Part shown: in pieces, positions 294 through 6,758 of the stretch
Layout of the letters: each line of letters begins with the position of its first letter
How positions within the stretch are numbered: position 1 is the first letter of the stretch
Assembly: GCA_012032215.1 (NCBI GenBank)
Contig: JAAURO010000095.1
Coordinates: forward strand, 1 to 6,758
Direction of reading: 5' to 3'
DNA: 6,758 nt
DNA from: Limnobacter sp.
GTDB taxonomy: Bacteria; Pseudomonadota; Gammaproteobacteria; Burkholderiales; Burkholderiaceae_B
Notes under the pieces: model-generated
The model's database searches: none
The model's input: the letters and a program-made list of their open reading frames with translations, nothing else
Told to the model about the DNA's origin: nothing
Translations under genes and position numbers: made by a program

Positions 294-1302
294 GTGAGTT
301 CCAGCAACGAAAATTCGTCCAATTTGTCCAATCCATCTGCTGTAGTCAGGCAGACCGATAGGGCTACCGACCCCACCATCAAGCAAAAGGCGGCCGCCAA
401 AACCGCGCGCATTCCCATTAAAATTGTGCCCGCCGAAACCCTTAAAAAACCCAGCTGGATACGGGTAAAAGCAGGTTCTCCCAGCACGCGCTTTTACGAA
501 ATCAAGGAAATTTTGCGCGAGCACAAATTGCACACCGTGTGCGAAGAGGCTTCGTGCCCCAATATTGGCGAATGTTTTGGCAAAGGCACCGCCACGTTTA
601 TGATCATGGGCGACAAATGTACCCGCCGTTGCCCGTTTTGCGACGTAGGCCACGGCAGACCCGACCCCCTGGATGCCGATGAGCCCCACAACCTGGCCAA
701 AACCATTGCCGCCCTGCGTTTAAGTTACGTGGTAATTACCTCCGTAGACCGCGACGACCTGCGCGATGGCGGTGCCGCCCACTTTGTGGCCTGCATCGAA
801 CAAACCCGCGCGCTTTCGCCCAACACCCGCATAGAAATTCTGGTTCCCGACTTTCGAGGCCGCCTGGACCGCTCTTTGGGCATTCTTACCGCTGCTCCAC
901 CCGATGTTATGAACCACAATCTGGAAACCGTGCCGCGCTTGTACAAAGAGGCTCGTCCTGGCTCCGATTACCAGCACTCTTTGAAATTGCTGCAAGACTT
1001 CAAGGCGCTGCACCCCCATGTGCCCACCAAAAGCGGCCTGATGCTGGGCCTTGGCGAAACCGATGAAGAAATTCTGGAAGTCATGCAGGATTTACGTCGC
1101 CATGGGGTAAACATGCTCACGATTGGGCAATACCTGGCCCCTTCTGGCCACCACTTGCCCGTGCGCCGCTATGTGCACCCCGACACTTTTAAAATGTTTG
1201 AAGAAAAGCCTACGACATGGGCTTTAGCCATGCTGCGGTGGGCGCCAGGTCCGTTCCAGCTACCACGCCGATGAACAGGCCCACCAGGCTGGGCTTCTGT
1301 GA
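294..1302 (+). CDS. lipA: Lipoyl synthase LipA (C-terminus frameshifted as sequenced)
   Basis: Radical SAM enzyme that inserts two sulfurs into the octanoyl chain on lipoyl domains, the step after LipB. From GTG 294 the auxiliary 4Fe-4S cluster cysteines are C83, C88 and C94 (CEEASC-x5-C), and the radical SAM cluster cysteines are C109, C113 and C116 (CTRRCPFC). The core through [16 protein letters not shown] matches betaproteobacterial LipA. One base is then missing after 1208 (AAGCC where AAGGCC is expected) and a second near 1247 (AGG where ATGG is expected). As written, the frame runs out at TGA 1272-1274 with an unrelated tail. With both bases restored it reads [14 protein letters not shown] then [17 protein letters not shown] and stops at TGA 1300-1302, giving about 336 residues, normal for the family. 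The lost RSSYH segment contains the serine that ligates the auxiliary cluster, so a real frameshift would probably abolish activity. An upstream GTG at 249 would add 15 residues. Confidence 0.92.
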
Positions 1303-1321
1303 CAATGCCAACGCTTAACAT

Positions 1322-2275: not shown

Positions 2276-3343
2276 TGTGTGCACCCCACAGCTTGTGGTA
2301 TGAAAGAGAACAGGTTCTTGGGGTCATTCAGCTGGGGCACCAAAGACAAATTGCTACCTATCTCAAGCTTGCACGCGGCATCGCGCATAAAGCGCAAAGC
2401 CGAAAAATCTTCCAGCGCAAAGCCCACCGAGTCAAACACGGTCACTTCGTGCGGCTTGGTGCGTCCGGGCTGGTGCTGCGCAAGCACACGCCACAATTCG
2501 GTTACTTCAAAACCGGGTGGCATTTGCTGAATGTCGCCTTCCAGACGGGTTTGTGGTTCGTACTCTACAAACACGCGGCTGTTGCGCAGCACATCGGGGT
2601 GCAGCTCGGTTTTCCGGGGCTGTCGCCGCCTACTGCATTGATGTGCATGCCGGGTTCCAGCATGTCTGCCGTTAAAATGGCGGCACGGGTGTTGTCTGCT
2701 GTAATGGTGGTCACAATGTCTACCCCACGCACGGCTTCACGGGTAGATCCAAACGCACGGGCATTAAGCCCCAGGTGCATCAGGTTGTGCATCAATTTTT
2801 GGGTGGCAGTGGCATCGGTGTCGTACAGGTGAAATTCTTGCACACCCAGTTCGTGGGCAAACGCCAAAGCCTGAAACTCGCTTTGCGCACCGTTGCCAAT
2901 GAGGGCCATTTTTTGCGCGCCCGGCTTGGCCAGTGTGCGCGCAGCCAGGGCAGACATGGCCGCGGTGCGAATGGCGGTGGTCAGCGTGAGTTCGCTGACA
3001 AAAAGCGGCGCACCGGTAGGCACATCGGCCAGCACACCAAAGGCCATGACGGTAGACAAACCATGCTGGTGGTTAAGTGGGTGGCCTGTTCACGCATTTA
3101 AAACGAGTAGAGGTGGGTGTCCGAGATGGGCATCAGTTCTATGACACCTTGCTCGGAATAGTTGGCGATACGGGCGGTTTTTTCAAAAGACTCCCAGCGC
3201 AGAAAATCAGCATGAATGTATTTGATCATGCCTTGCACGCACTCGGGCAGCCCTAAGTTGCTTACCAACAATGCGGCGTCCTCGGCGCTGACAAAGCGCG
3301 TGGTGACTGTGTGGATGGCGGGGGTGTGCTTGGGCTTGCGCAT
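2272..3343 (-). CDS. ocd: Ornithine cyclodeaminase (frameshifted as sequenced)
   Basis: NAD-dependent enzyme of the OCD/mu-crystallin family that turns L-ornithine into L-proline and ammonia. With its arginase partner it forms an arginine-to-proline route. The start is ATG 3343, with AGGAG five bases upstream. Three stretches in different frames together give a full protein: residues 1-81 (ending SDTHLYSF), a middle part with the nucleotide-binding GNGAQS (about 149-154) and INAVGGDSPGK, and a last part with FVEYEPQTR and DSVGFALEDFSAL. The breaks are an extra base in the A-run 3100-3103, an extra base at 3087 (these two restore FKCVNGHPLN), and a missing base in the T-run 2610-2613 (restores GKTELHPDVLRN). 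The corrected length is 356 residues, usual for this proteobacterial subfamily. The stop overlaps the arginase start as ATGA. If the breaks are real, the gene is dead. Confidence 0.88.
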
Positions 3344-3542: not shown

Positions 3543-3965
3543 ATGGACACTCTGGACATGCAATTAATTGGTTTGTTGCGGCAAAACGCACGCATGCAAA
3601 TAGCCGAACTTGCCCACCGTTTAAAGGTAGCGCGTGGCACCGTAACCAACCGCATGGCGCGTCTGGAAAAAGAAGGCCTGATTATTGGCTACACCGTTCG
3701 TTTGCGGCCCGATGCGCAGCCCAACGAAATTAAAGCCTGGATGAGTATTCTAGTGGAAGGCAACCACACCATGGCGGTACAGGCCAGTTTGCTGGGCGAA
3801 CCAGGGGTCGTCGCAATACACGGTACCAATGGCCGGTGGGATTTGCTGGCCGAGCTACGCGCCGAAACCTTGCAGGGGTTGTCTGAGGTGTTAGAGCGTA
3901 TCCGCTTGATTCGTAAAATTCAAAACACAGAAACGAGTATTCATTTGTCGTCGTGGAAAGGGTGA
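3543..3965 (+). CDS. Lrp/AsnC-family transcriptional regulator
   Basis: A 140-residue DNA-binding regulator. Residues 1 to about 55 form the AsnC-type winged helix-turn-helix: MDTLDMQLIGLLRQNARMQI, then IAELAHRLKVARGTVTNRMARLEKEGLIIGY in its usual order. Residues from about 65 to the end form the ligand-binding RAM domain, with the GRWDLLAEL strand typical of the family. The protein is slightly shorter than the usual 150 or so residues. It is divergent from the ocd-arginase pair across a 199-base region rich in inverted repeats. The common arrangement in this family is a local regulator that senses an amino acid and controls the adjacent catabolic genes and itself. Arginine or ornithine is the obvious candidate ligand, by inference only. 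No frameshift is seen and base composition is like that of the left-hand genes. Confidence 0.9.
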   Translation: MDTLDMQLIGLLRQNARMQIAELAHRLKVARGTVTNRMARLEKEGLIIGYTVRLRPDAQPNEIKAWMSILVEGNHTMAVQASLLGEPGVVAIHGTNGRWDLLAELRAETLQGLSEVLERIRLIRKIQNTETSIHLSSWKG

Positions 3966-3974
3966 GGGTGGTTT

Positions 3975-3983
3975 TGCTACAAT
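3975..3983 (+). promoter_or_regulatory. Candidate extended -10 promoter ahead of the AT-rich gene
   Basis: TGCTACAAT is a TGn extended -10 followed by a five-of-six match to TATAAT. No good -35 is found at the proper spacing, as is tolerated with an extended -10. Transcription would start near 3990, leaving roughly 90 bases before ATG 4081. Confidence 0.4.
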
Positions 3984-4080
3984 CCGGTCTTTATTTTGAC
4001 CATGGCTGAAGTTATTTTCACTGGAGCGAGCGGCTTGCTGGTTGCTTGGGTGCTTTGGCACAATTACTCTTCGCTTAACA

Positions 4081-6758
4081 ATGACCGCACAAAAATTTTT
4101 TTCCTTCCTTCCCCCTTTTACTCACTCAGGAGCTTCTTCCGAAGAGGCTTTTTCATCGTCGCTTTTGCAGATTGGTTTTGAAGCCTCTACGAATGCAGTG
4201 AGACCCCATGAAAGGCAAGAATTCCTTGAGGAACAGAGGCTTGTTCAGGAAATATTTCCCACGCCGTCCCTGCGGAACTTGCAAAACGCGAGCGTTTGCA
4301 GTGCTTCCGAATTTTTCAACAACATCAAAACGGCTGAAGGGGTTGAATCCCATCATAAAGATTTTTACATCAATTTGGTTGTGTTGCTACATGCTTTCAA
4401 CCTGGCGCCTGAAAGTAATAGTGCTCTACGGACAAAGCTGGTGGTGCGCATTCTTAATTATTGCTACAAGTTTTCTACCTACCATTCTTTGGCTACCGTT
4501 CGTTATTCTACCAATCCAGTTCAGGAAGAAGATTGGGAGGCTGAGGGTTGTTATCACCGTTGCGAAGACACCAATTTAAGGAATGGGTTTTCAAATGCAC
4601 TTTCAAGAATTCTTAAGATACCTGTAAAAAACATAAAGCCTGTAACAAGTCCGCAGGTTCATTCTCTCCTCAAAAGAAATTATGTTTTACAAAATAACTC
4701 CAGAGTTCTTTCATGGAAAGATGGCGGAGCTTTATTTGCAGATGAAGAAAATAGTTCAGAAAAAAATGAATCATATTTCTCGATTTTTCCAAATATCAGC
4801 GAGTTAATTCTTCATGCAATGTCTGTAAGTCCGCGTAGCTTGTATTTTGATATTAGCGAAAGTCTGGCGTTACTCGCAAAATCTATAAAAAATCCGCAGG
4901 AAGTGGGGTTTTTTATTAAAACAATTCAAAATTTTCTGATCGATGTTATAGAGTACGGAGTTTCTGAAAGAATAAAATCAGAAAGTTCTTATTTTGAGAA
5001 AAAGGACGATAATGAAAAGCGTATTTATTTCGATGATAAGTTTAAAAATATGATTATTGATGTGTGCGAAAAAATAGTGATTGGCGGTGTTTTTAAAATA
5101 AATAATCAGTATGTTTTGTACAATGGGAAACTTCCTGTTTTTAAATATTTTAACGGGGATGTCTTCCAAAAGAACGAGATTTTGAGTGCCTCTGAAATGA
5201 TAAAAAAAATGAAAGATGCACACAGTAGATTTTCAGAAATACCAATCTATGATGAGAAATTGCGTGATGCAAGCAGTTTTCGCGCCGGCTTTACACCATC
5301 GCCAATTTTTATTATGGAAAGCTGGTTTGGTTTTTGTGGAGGTATTGAATCTATTTTCTCTGATTTAGGAATTAAGAAAGAGAATATTCTTTGTTTTACA
5401 AATAAAGATAAAAAATTTTCTGTTGAACAGATAGCAAATTTTTCATCTTTTTCTTAATCATAAAAAAATAGCTTCATTTGAAGAAATACTTAGTGGTTCT
5501 TCCGAATCATATCAAATAATTTTGCTAAAAATAACCCTGAAGCTAGTAAAAGGGCTTGGTTATTACCAAGTGGATGACGCATTTTCAGAAAATAACATGA
5601 TGCCGTTGCTTAATTTTTCCTGTAACCGAATGCTCGGGCATATGCAAAATGCTGTTTCACAAAAAGAAGATTTTTTGTCTTTTCTAAATTGCATTTCTTT
5701 AATACATGAGGAAGTCGCGACCATTCTGGCTATTGTGGAACCGTATAAAAAGGCCACTTTTAATCAATCAATGCATGAAATAATTGCACAAAACGCAAAT
5801 TTCAAGCATGTAATTGAACCAGTTTATTACTGTAAAAATTCTGGTATGAGCTGTTGTCAATCAGCTCTAAATGCCGCGGAATTCAGGAAGTCCGGTGGGT
5901 CTGATGGTATGAGTCCGGTCCTTAAAATTGGACTCGGTAAGAATAATTATCATGAAAACGGCTTTCTTTTACATTTTGGGGAATTGCATGATGTTTTTGA
6001 ATTTTCTGATGATCTTTTAAGCGCTATAGAAATAGATGCTTATTTTGGAAATTTTCATCCTTCTTTTAGTTTGAAGGCCTCGGTGTACAAACCATCTGAA
6101 ATTATTTCTGATGTGGAAAAATTGTTTACAGAAAAAATGGTATCAAATCATGTTCTTGTTGTTATAGACAGCACAATAGGGATGACTGATGATGGGAAGC
6201 TGGAGGAGTTTATATCGCATAATAAAGACAGAATAAATAATAAAGAAATGAGTGTGGTAAATCTCCGAAGTTTGCAAAAAATGATCAGTCCGGCATGGAT
6301 ATGCATGGAGGTGGCTTAATGGCAGTGTACTCAAAGTGTCCATTGTTACTGGAATATTTTAAGAGAGAAGATGAGGAATCCTCATTCTCGGCAATCAATT
6401 TCCAGGGCGTTATGCATTTTATGAAAAACCTTCAACCAGAGCTTAATGAAAGACGCTCGGAAATAATGAAAACGGCTATCAGACTTTCTACTCCAGGAGA
6501 TTCGATCGGATTTCCAGCTTCAATGTATACCAATGATTACAACGAATCACCTATTCAAGTTGTTCCAAATGAAGATCCTCAAACCGGTTTTGTACACTTG
6601 CGTTTGAATGCCCGTTGGGCTTTAAACGTGGGCGACTTTTTTGCTGATCATCTTGCTAGGGAACCCCTGAACAAACCACCAACCCCAAGACAGCGAAGCA
6701 AAAAGCAACAAATTTCTTATTTCTGCACAGATTTTGTATCAAAAACAGCCCCTCAACC
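4081..6758 (+). CDS. Large protein of unknown function, possibly PLP-dependent; split by two frameshifts, C-terminus outside window
   Basis: I do not recognise this family. Three stretches join into one protein of at least 892 residues: 4081 to about 5440, then about 5440 to 6280, then 6282 to the edge. Removing one T from the runs at 5439-5443 or 5448-5452 links EQIANF with LNHKKIASFEEIL and removes the TAA at 5455. Adding one A to the run 6276-6281 turns LQKMISP-stop into SLQKNDQSGMDMHGGG and continues to the end. In corrected numbering D696 lies in VVIDSTIG and K733 in SLQK. An Asp about 36 residues before a Ser-x-x-Lys, followed by a Gly-rich stretch, resembles the PLP site of fold-type I enzymes. 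SGGSDG occurs near 604. No signal peptide or clear membrane helix is seen. The start is uncertain: ATG 4081 lacks a Shine-Dalgarno site and the upstream frame is open to about 4042. The middle is strongly AT-rich, suggesting transfer. Alternatively these are two or three separate genes. Confidence 0.6.
4570..6300. other. AT-rich segment, probably horizontally acquired
   Basis: A hand count of 4981-5040 gives about 28% G+C, against about 65% at 661-720, 45% at 4201-4260 and 48% at 6601-6660. Codons are rich in A and T at third positions. No insertion sequence, integrase, tRNA or terminal repeat is visible in the window, so the mode of entry and the right boundary are unknown. Confidence 0.6.

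What the first reader, a model, noticed from the sequence alone, without database searches (positions are those of the whole stretch)
4081..6758. Three AT-rich open stretches form one unknown protein of at least 892 residues
The sequence shows three + strand open stretches in two frames. The second is open upstream across the first one's stop, and the third is open upstream to about 6244 across the second one's stop. Single-base changes in homopolymers (minus one T at 5439-5452, plus one A at 6276-6281) join them without leftover residues. I recognise no family, so this may be an undescribed large enzyme. Annotated as it stands, it would appear as several unrelated hypothetical proteins.
Basis: partly seen in the sequence, partly recalled or inferred. 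Interest (0 to 1): 0.75.

Follow-up and report, generated by a model that had tools for sequence, protein, structure and literature searches.

The report
Broken gene for unclassified vitamin-B6 enzyme
Three neighbouring reading frames in a Limnobacter genome are pieces of one gene that is cut off by what is likely a mobile insertion element, and its protein, likely about 985 residues long, is predicted to be a large vitamin-B6 (PLP)-dependent enzyme of a family that Pfam and NCBIfam do not name and that has relatives in a few small-genome bacteria.

Summary
Observation confirmed: three + strand open stretches (4081-5457, 5459-6319, 6244-end) in two frames. One metagenomic protein, P0002 (591 aa), aligns across both joins on the raw window DNA, so this is one gene. 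The missing C-terminus (120 aa, then stop) lies on contig C268 of the same genome. The whole would have about 985 residues. The genus is Limnobacter; the stretch is AT-rich. The C-terminal half is homologous (hhalign E 1.4e-12, 301 columns) to four large proteins in small-genome Gammaproteobacteria. The family carries elements of Cys/Met-type PLP enzymes (D-x-T, S-x-x-K, R-x-S/T-x-G-x-E), and profile comparison ranks that type first of 14 targets (E 2.3e-4, but HH probability only 45%). No Pfam or NCBIfam model matches over its cut-off. Best reading: a large unclassified fold-type-I PLP enzyme, probably acquired laterally, then inactivated by the insertion. The frame breaks are probably assembly errors. 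Substrate and the N-terminal ~390 residues remain unknown.

The parts
4081..5454 (+). Piece 1 (458 codons, frame 1): N-terminal region. Only the last ~65 codons (5260-5454) have a relative; the first ~390 residues have none in what was searched
   Evidence: P0002 residues 13-78 match at 5260-5457, 30% identity (17-67); padded search of 5.8 billion proteins returned only itself (the 7,989 candidates sharing most words scored)
5459..6280 (+). Piece 2 (frame 2): first part of the predicted PLP domain, with SGM at 5840, Tyr at 5948, Asp-Ser-Thr at 6167 and the predicted cofactor lysine codon at 6278
   Evidence: P0002 residues 61-348 match at 5405-6280, 40% identity; motif positions
6277..6659 (+). 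Piece 3 (frame 1): second part of the predicted PLP domain, up to the repeat; the last 4 bases (CTAG, 6656-6659) are the putative insertion target
   Evidence: P0002 residues 348-481, 52% identity over 6277-6678, the last few residues running into the repeat; repeat boundary
6660..6758 (+). End of a repeated, IS-like element (99 bases in the window, at least 229 bases in C280) that cuts the gene and ends the contig
   Evidence: 96-100% identical copies at C201, C243, C280, C105; bases before the common start: CTAG, TTAA, CTGA, TTAG, TGAG
3543..3962 (+). Lrp/AsnC-type regulator next to the gene; beside OCD and arginase as in the relative G008
   Evidence: Pfam; up to 71% identity in Limnobacter relatives; G008 neighbourhood

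Best explanation
The three stretches are one gene whose protein, likely about 985 residues in full, is predicted to be a pyridoxal-phosphate (PLP) enzyme related to the Cys/Met-metabolism type, and the gene is likely inactivated by what is probably an IS5-like insertion after codon ~860. Shown: the one-gene status (homolog across both joins); the repeat from 6660; a matching C-terminus on contig C268; homology of the C-terminal half to four large proteins of small-genome Gammaproteobacteria. Inferred: a PLP cofactor would be bound as a Schiff base by the lysine at 6278-6280, its ring nitrogen held by the Asp of Asp-Ser-Thr (6167), its phosphate by the Ser-Gly-Met loop (5840) and the Ser of S-x-x-K; the substrate's carboxylate would be held by the Arg of R-I-S-P-G-L-E on C268. 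Untested: the enzyme would take an amino acid through an external aldimine and eliminate or replace a beta or gamma substituent, as C-S lyases do. The N-terminal ~390 residues would give location, partner or substrate selection. Because the insertion separates the carboxylate-binding Arg from the rest, the copy in this assembly should be inactive. It was probably acquired laterally: GC 34-41% against 53-58% in the neighbouring genes, in a slot that holds other genes in the five Limnobacter relatives looked at.
For: One gene: P0002 found with E 1.3e-84; tblastn of P0002 on the raw window gives three collinear segments across both joins. C-terminus: P0002 residues 481-590 match C268 at 55%, open at the contig end and closed by a stop; the profile A4, which holds no Limnobacter sequence, finds that C268 piece at E 2.4e-6 and, besides its own members G667 and G762, nothing else at E 0.001 in 369 genomes. 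Family: P0002 hits G762; G762's protein hits three more, matches in 3 of 14 genomes of its order, itself included; hhalign A2 against A4 probability 97.7, E 1.4e-12, 301 columns. PLP type: profile of the four gammaproteobacterial domains against 14 targets gives Cys/Met E 2.3e-4, aminotransferase class I/II E 0.015, the other 12 E 0.099 or worse; in the printed alignment D-x-T and S-x-x-K fall in register. R-[LIMV]-[ST]-x-G-[LIVM]-E is in 5 of 5 family proteins and in the C268 piece, in 8 of 22 Cys/Met proteins, 1 of 23 aminotransferases and 0 of 169 background ORFs. Residue roles in methionine gamma-lyase: PMC9865163 (passages). Genus: G014 equals Limnobacter humi.
Against: No Pfam or NCBIfam model matches any family member over its cut-off. 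hhalign's own probability for the Cys/Met match is only 44.6% (four domains) and 15.9% once P0002 is added (E 0.0016); the match covers 127-139 columns and stops before the R-x-S-x-G-x-E element; in the printed alignment the SGM of P0002 itself sits in an insert and the column with GM holds another Met of P0002. The AlphaFold2 model of P0002 is useless (mean pLDDT 33.6) and Foldseek gave nothing at E 0.001 or better. The PDB profile hit to cystathionine gamma-lyase is only E 0.24, behind tRNA methyltransferase 10C at 0.013-0.018. A Tyr-x-Arg element was not seen before the SGM loop (by eye). The first P0002-G762 link alone was weak (E 5.1e-4 in one of 369 genomes). A4 did not reach the window's own pieces 2 and 3 at E 0.001. 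The motif pattern was chosen after looking. C219 and C268 are joined only by homology; about 6 residues between them are in neither contig.
Confidence: 0.73

Rival explanations
1. One gene, same family, but the PLP site is a relic: the protein is a non-catalytic scaffold or host-directed protein that kept the fold and lost the chemistry.
For: Strong divergence (18-27% identity of three members to L064), no match to any enzyme model over cut-off, the residue before the lysine is Gln in P0002 and the window and Ala in L064 and L067.
Against: Asp and Thr of D-x-T, Ser and Lys of S-x-x-K and Arg, Gly and Glu of R-x-S/T-x-G-x-E are among the 25 columns invariant in the four, which is what selection on the cofactor site would give.
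Confidence: 0.25
2. The frame breaks are real lesions: the gene was a decaying pseudogene already before the insertion, not a sequencing artefact.
For: The gene is interrupted by an IS-like element, sits in a variable AT-rich slot, and the assembly carries five copies of that element end.
Against: Conserved genes are broken at a similar rate in the same assembly: two frame changes in OCD and two in lipA within about 3.4 kb of four conserved genes of this contig, none in arginase and the regulator, PEP synthase on C280 and SecF on C243.
Confidence: 0.25
3. The C-terminal half is a fold-type-I PLP protein nearer to class I/II aminotransferases than to the Cys/Met type.
For: Asp-to-Lys spacing of 37 residues in P0002 is nearer to the 36 recalled for aspartate aminotransferase than to the 25 recalled for methionine gamma-lyase; class I/II is the second-best of 14 profile targets (E 0.015).
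Against: Cys/Met is better by nearly two orders of magnitude (E 2.3e-4) and the R-x-S/T-x-G-x-E element is rare in class I/II (1 of 23).
Confidence: 0.2
4. Separate hypothetical genes, as the ORF table would annotate them.
For: Stops at 5455 and 6317 in the DNA as given.
Against: P0002 is one continuous protein across both.
Confidence: 0.02

Closest known systems
Cys/Met metabolism PLP-dependent enzymes (PF01053; methionine gamma-lyase, cystathionine gamma-lyase/synthase)
   Same: Order of elements: Met loop, Tyr, Asp-x-Thr, Ser-x-x-Lys, Arg-x-Ser/Thr-x-Gly-x-Glu; best profile-profile match of 14; Lys-to-Arg distance 159 in P0002 against 164 in a methionine gamma-lyase (Lys209, Arg373 in PMC9865163, passages)
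   Different: No match to the Pfam model; Asp-to-Lys spacing 37; no Tyr-x-Arg element seen; about 585 residues before the SGM loop in the window protein against about 85 in that lyase (Gly86); the 17 Cys/Met proteins used here have 391-472 residues
Class I/II aminotransferases (PF00155)
   Same: Fold-type-I element order; Asp-to-Lys spacing of about 36 (recalled)
   Different: Weaker profile match (E 0.015); R-x-S/T-x-G-x-E element absent in 22 of 23
P0002, JGI metagenome hypothetical protein, 591 aa
   Same: 46% identity over the searched region, across both joins and into the C268 piece
   Different: Its match starts at residue ~393 of the window protein; it begins with Val, so it may be cut at its contig's edge (inference); not interrupted
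Large unnamed proteins of an order of 0.7-1.4 Mb Gammaproteobacteria (L064 1199 aa; L067 748 aa; L068 at least 1266 aa; L069 965 aa)
   Same: The PLP-like domain over 301 columns
   Different: N-termini without detectable similarity to the window's or P0002's (hhalign no better than reversed control); long C-terminal extensions in three of four

Membership tests
PF01053 Cys/Met metabolism PLP enzymes | Score over the curated Pfam cut-off | tested here: not met
   No PF01053 match for P0002 and the four relatives at E up to 10 or for the window pieces at E up to 1
PF01053 Cys/Met metabolism PLP enzymes | Schiff-base lysine in Ser-x-x-Lys after Asp-x-Thr | tested here: met
   5 of 5 family proteins; in register with Cys/Met proteins in hhalign; window 6167 and 6278. 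The covalent bond itself is untested
PF01053 Cys/Met metabolism PLP enzymes | Gly-Met phosphate loop and a Tyr at the substrate amino group | tested here: inconclusive
   SGM and Tyr are present in P0002 (205-207, 241) and the window (5840, 5948), but hhalign placed P0002's SGM in an insert; the four distant relatives keep only Met and Tyr
PF01053 Cys/Met metabolism PLP enzymes | Arg-x-Ser-x-Gly-x-Glu, Arg binding the substrate carboxylate | tested here: met
   Motif in 5 of 5 with Ser or Thr, and in the C268 piece, against 8 of 22 Cys/Met proteins; outside the hhalign match. Role of Arg375 from PMC9865163 passages; that it lies in this motif is recalled
PF01053 Cys/Met metabolism PLP enzymes | Tyr-x-Arg of the neighbouring subunit (recalled) | tested here: not met
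   No Y-[ST]-R seen in the residues before the loop printed (by eye)
PF01053 Cys/Met metabolism PLP enzymes | Gamma or beta elimination/replacement activity | not testable with these tools
   Needs purified protein
PLP fold type I | Three-dimensional fold | tested here: inconclusive
   AlphaFold2 mean pLDDT 33.6; Foldseek none at E 0.001 or better
New family (P0002, window, L064, L067, L068, L069) | Homology over the whole PLP-like domain, both directions | tested here: met
   hhalign E 1.4e-12 over 301 columns; A4 finds the C268 piece, E 2.4e-6, though not the window's pieces 2 and 3
IS5-type insertion sequence | Repeated element with YTAR target site | tested here: inconclusive
   Copies on five contigs; CTAG, TTAA, TTAG fit YTAR, CTGA and TGAG do not; YTAR for IS5 from PMC10359306 passages; no transposase gene or second end was recovered

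The most novel reading that the evidence does not exclude
A new superfamily branch of giant PLP enzymes: a fast-evolving Cys/Met-type catalytic core set between unrelated long N- and C-terminal regions, traded between host-associated small-genome Gammaproteobacteria and a Limnobacter that also carries an F-box protein, and used as enzymes delivered into a protist or algal host to act on its sulfur or amino-acid pool.
Probability: 0.22. Interest if true: 0.75.

Novelty: new variant of a known kind. Interest (0 to 1): 0.5.

Why it matters
A stretch that annotation would list as unrelated hypothetical proteins is one protein of a family that Pfam and NCBIfam do not cover, with a predicted cofactor and catalytic residues that can be tested at once on an uninterrupted relative. 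If right, it widens the size and architecture range of PLP enzymes, links a Limnobacter to small-genome Gammaproteobacteria, and shows how frame errors plus an insertion can hide such a protein from homology searches: pieces 1 and 2 searched apart found no relative among 5.8 billion proteins, while a query spanning pieces 2 and 3 found one.

Tried and rejected
Pieces apart: Pfam, NCBIfam, PHROGs, PADLOC gave nothing credible (best E 0.0066 PADLOC, 0.0092 PHROGs, 0.055 Pfam, all over short stretches). PDB by sequence: best E 0.1 for pieces, 1.5 for P0002, 0.54 for A4. Plasmids by tblastn: pieces 1 and 2 and P0002, no match. Viral contigs: three pieces and P0002, no relative. Genome contigs with piece 1: no relative among 77 pattern matches. 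60 genomes (own and relatives) with piece 1: only itself. 399 genomes of the order with piece 2: besides the own genome two weak hits, G055 and G423; the G055 hit (L043) lies antisense to what I recognise as electron-transfer flavoprotein genes and the G423 hit did not hold up in BLAST, so both were dropped as chance. Padded piece 1 against 5.8 billion proteins: only itself (the 7,989 candidates sharing most words were scored); padded piece 2: nothing among 1,453 candidates. Piece 3 alone was not searched there.

Considered and rejected: phage or plasmid origin (no match in viral contigs and plasmids, calls above; the 'phages' record collection was not searched); an RNA gene or tRNA beside it; promoter- and terminator-like sites, no more than shuffles explain; N-terminal homology to the gammaproteobacterial proteins (no better than reversed control); trusting the structure model or its Foldseek list, in which omega-transaminases stand among insignificant hits. 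In A1 MAFFT misplaced part of the end of piece 1, so A2 and A6 leave it out. Two paper searches gave nothing that I used for the residue roles.

Not done: no deeper alignment for a fold, because relatives from the genome search are not among the sequences that structure prediction says it takes; not sent. The carbonic-anhydrase control found no members and was dropped from the 14-target comparison. Cys/Met set: 22 of 24 loci gave a usable ORF, 17 after removing near-duplicates; aminotransferase set: 23 of 30, then 17.

Full report
What is in the sequence. The window is the whole of contig C219 of an incomplete genome (1.94 Mb, 306 contigs, 65.7% complete). The contig reads lipB end, lipA, arginase (-), ornithine cyclodeaminase (-), an Lrp/AsnC regulator (+), then the AT-rich stretch (the names lipB, lipA and ornithine cyclodeaminase are recalled from the translations, with a Radical_SAM/LIAS match for lipA). 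GC falls from 53-58% in the neighbouring genes to 34-41% in the pieces.

One gene. Pieces searched apart found no relative (piece 3 was searched apart only in viral contigs and family libraries). A query with the three pieces in a row and an X at each join, scored on residues 520-860, found one protein, P0002, 591 residues, from a JGI metagenome contig of 6,514 bases, E 1.3e-84, 46% identity. The check that does not depend on that query is tblastn of P0002 against the window DNA as it stands: residues 17-67 on frame 1 (5272-5424), 61-348 on frame 2 (5405-6280, the codons up to the TAG at 5432 being overhang), 348-481 on frame 1 (6277-6678, the end running into the repeat). The profile search extends the first to residues 13-78 (5260-5457). 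One continuous protein therefore crosses both joins. At the second join no residue is lost; at the first the two frames overlap in the alignment, and the exact point is read by eye.

The end of the gene. Bases 6660-6758 also stand on C201, C243, C280 and C105 with 96-100% identity, next to different genes and within 250 bases of a contig end. The bases before the common start are CTAG, TTAA, CTGA, TTAG and TGAG; three of five fit YTAR, the target of IS5 (PMC10359306, passages). I read this as one end of an IS5-like insertion sequence; no transposase gene or second end was recovered, so that is an inference. P0002 residues 481-590 match the end of another contig of the same genome, C268:5219-5548 (-), at 55%. 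There the frame is open at the contig end and closes after 120 residues; fructose-1,6-bisphosphatase follows on the other strand. With about 860 residues in the window, about 6 not covered, and 120 on C268, the whole protein would have about 985. That C268 follows C219 rests on homology alone.

Errors or lesions. Of four conserved genes in this contig (about 3.4 kb), OCD changes frame twice against a Limnobacter relative and lipA twice near its end, while arginase and the regulator do not (lipA read by eye in three frames). PEP synthase on C280 and SecF on C243 are split in the same way (names recalled, Pfam PPDK_N/PEP-utilizers and SecD_SecF_C). The two breaks in 2.6 kb of this gene are what such an assembly gives.

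Relatives. At E 0.01 P0002 finds one protein among 369 genomes of the class besides the window's own: a 1199-residue protein of G762, a 1.1 Mb genome, E 5.1e-4. That protein finds three more in its order (matches in 3 of 14 genomes, itself included): 748, at least 1266 and 965 residues. The single link is weak, so it was tested by profiles: P0002 with the window pieces and the C268 piece (A2) against the four domains (A4) gives hhalign probability 97.7, E 1.4e-12, 301 columns. In the other direction, the profile A4, without any Limnobacter sequence, run over 369 genomes, returns its members G667 and G762 and the C268 piece at E 2.4e-6, and nothing else at E 0.001; it does not reach the window's pieces 2 and 3. 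The family is therefore real and rare in what was searched. None of its members matches Pfam or NCBIfam over a cut-off (one sub-threshold NCBIfam match at 0.068).

What kind of protein. The four distant members keep Asp and Thr of D-x-T, Ser and Lys of S-x-x-K, Gln and Asp after it, and Arg, Gly and Glu of R-x-S/T-x-G-x-E near the end of the domain. P0002 and the window have the same elements and also a Ser-Gly-Met and a Tyr (P0002 205, 241, 311, 348, 507; window 5840, 5948, 6167, 6278; C268 5470). In methionine gamma-lyases the Gly-Met loop and a Ser hold the PLP phosphate, the lysine carries PLP, Tyr114 and Arg375 hold the substrate (PMC9865163, passages). That Arg375 lies in the R-x-S-x-G-x-E element, and the pairing of Asp with the PLP nitrogen, are recalled. 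As a test, the profile of the four domains was aligned with Cys/Met enzymes and class I/II aminotransferases collected from relatives, with five unrelated families, and with the reversed form of each of the seven: Cys/Met E 2.3e-4 (probability 44.6%, 139 columns), class I/II 0.015, the other 12 from 0.099 to 0.74. With P0002 added: 0.0016 (probability 15.9%, 127 columns), 0.016, and 0.077 to 0.91. In the printed alignment D-x-T and S-x-x-K are in register; a Met of the family stands on GM, but the SGM of P0002 itself is in an insert, and the match ends before the R-x-S element. The combined pattern D-x-T, S-x-x-K, D, then R-x-S/T-x-G-x-E occurs in 5 of 5 family proteins, 0 of 169 background ORFs, 0 of 23 aminotransferases and 0 of 10,000 shuffles (its first half alone in 429 of 10,000), but also in only 1 of 22 Cys/Met proteins, five of the six printed lacking the Asp after the lysine; the pattern was set after looking. 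The structure model is not usable.

How it would work. On this reading the C-terminal half binds PLP on the lysine, takes an amino acid as an external aldimine, and eliminates or replaces a side-chain substituent. The N-terminal ~390 residues have no relative in what was searched and no similarity to the N-termini of the four distant members, so they may serve location or partner choice. The insertion removes the Arg that would hold the substrate, so this copy should be dead unless other alleles are intact.

Setting. In the five Limnobacter relatives whose locus I fetched, the slot beside the same regulator holds a Fic protein (G008 by Pfam, G012 by similarity to it), an AtuA-like gene (G003, G011) or other genes (G014) (AtuA name recalled). 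The same assembly has an F-box ORF next to another copy of the repeat (C243; Pfam E 4e-4, just over the cut-off). A host-directed role is therefore possible but untested, and no secretion signal was looked for.

Verdict. Observation confirmed; one gene confirmed; length corrected; a predicted PLP enzyme of an unclassified, rare family; probably acquired laterally and interrupted. It is a new variant of a known kind rather than a new kind.

Noticed in passing
6660-6758; L033 5068-5296, ends of L034, L035, L036: A repeated IS-like element end sits on five contigs near their ends, so this element probably breaks the assembly in at least five places.
   Followed up: partly
L035 (C243) 130-426, - strand: A 98-aa ORF with an F-box (Pfam 20.6 bits against a cut-off of 20.5) beside another copy of the repeat: a domain typical of eukaryotes in a Limnobacter assembly.
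   Followed up: partly
L037:6218-7354 (-) and L038:6528-7664 (+): In two Limnobacter relatives a 378-aa Fic-type protein (Pfam match for L037; L038 by similarity) occupies the slot beside the Lrp gene that holds the PLP-type gene here.
   Followed up: partly
L034 (C201) 3777-5111 and 5641-7188, + strand: Two large ORFs (444 and 515 aa) without any Pfam match at E 0.01, the second ending inside the repeat.
   Followed up: no
window 1195-1320, 2595-3101; L033 1161-1332; L035 4138-4387: lipA, ornithine cyclodeaminase, PEP synthase and SecF are split by frame changes: indel errors seem common in this assembly.
   Followed up: partly
L033 (C280) 4251-4805, + strand: A HipA-C-like fragment of 184 aa lies close to the repeat copy on C280.
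   Followed up: no
L043 1516-2100: The best hit of piece 2 among 399 genomes outside its own is antisense to what look like electron-transfer flavoprotein genes: a chance tblastn hit with E 2e-7 in a one-locus search without composition correction.
   Followed up: yes
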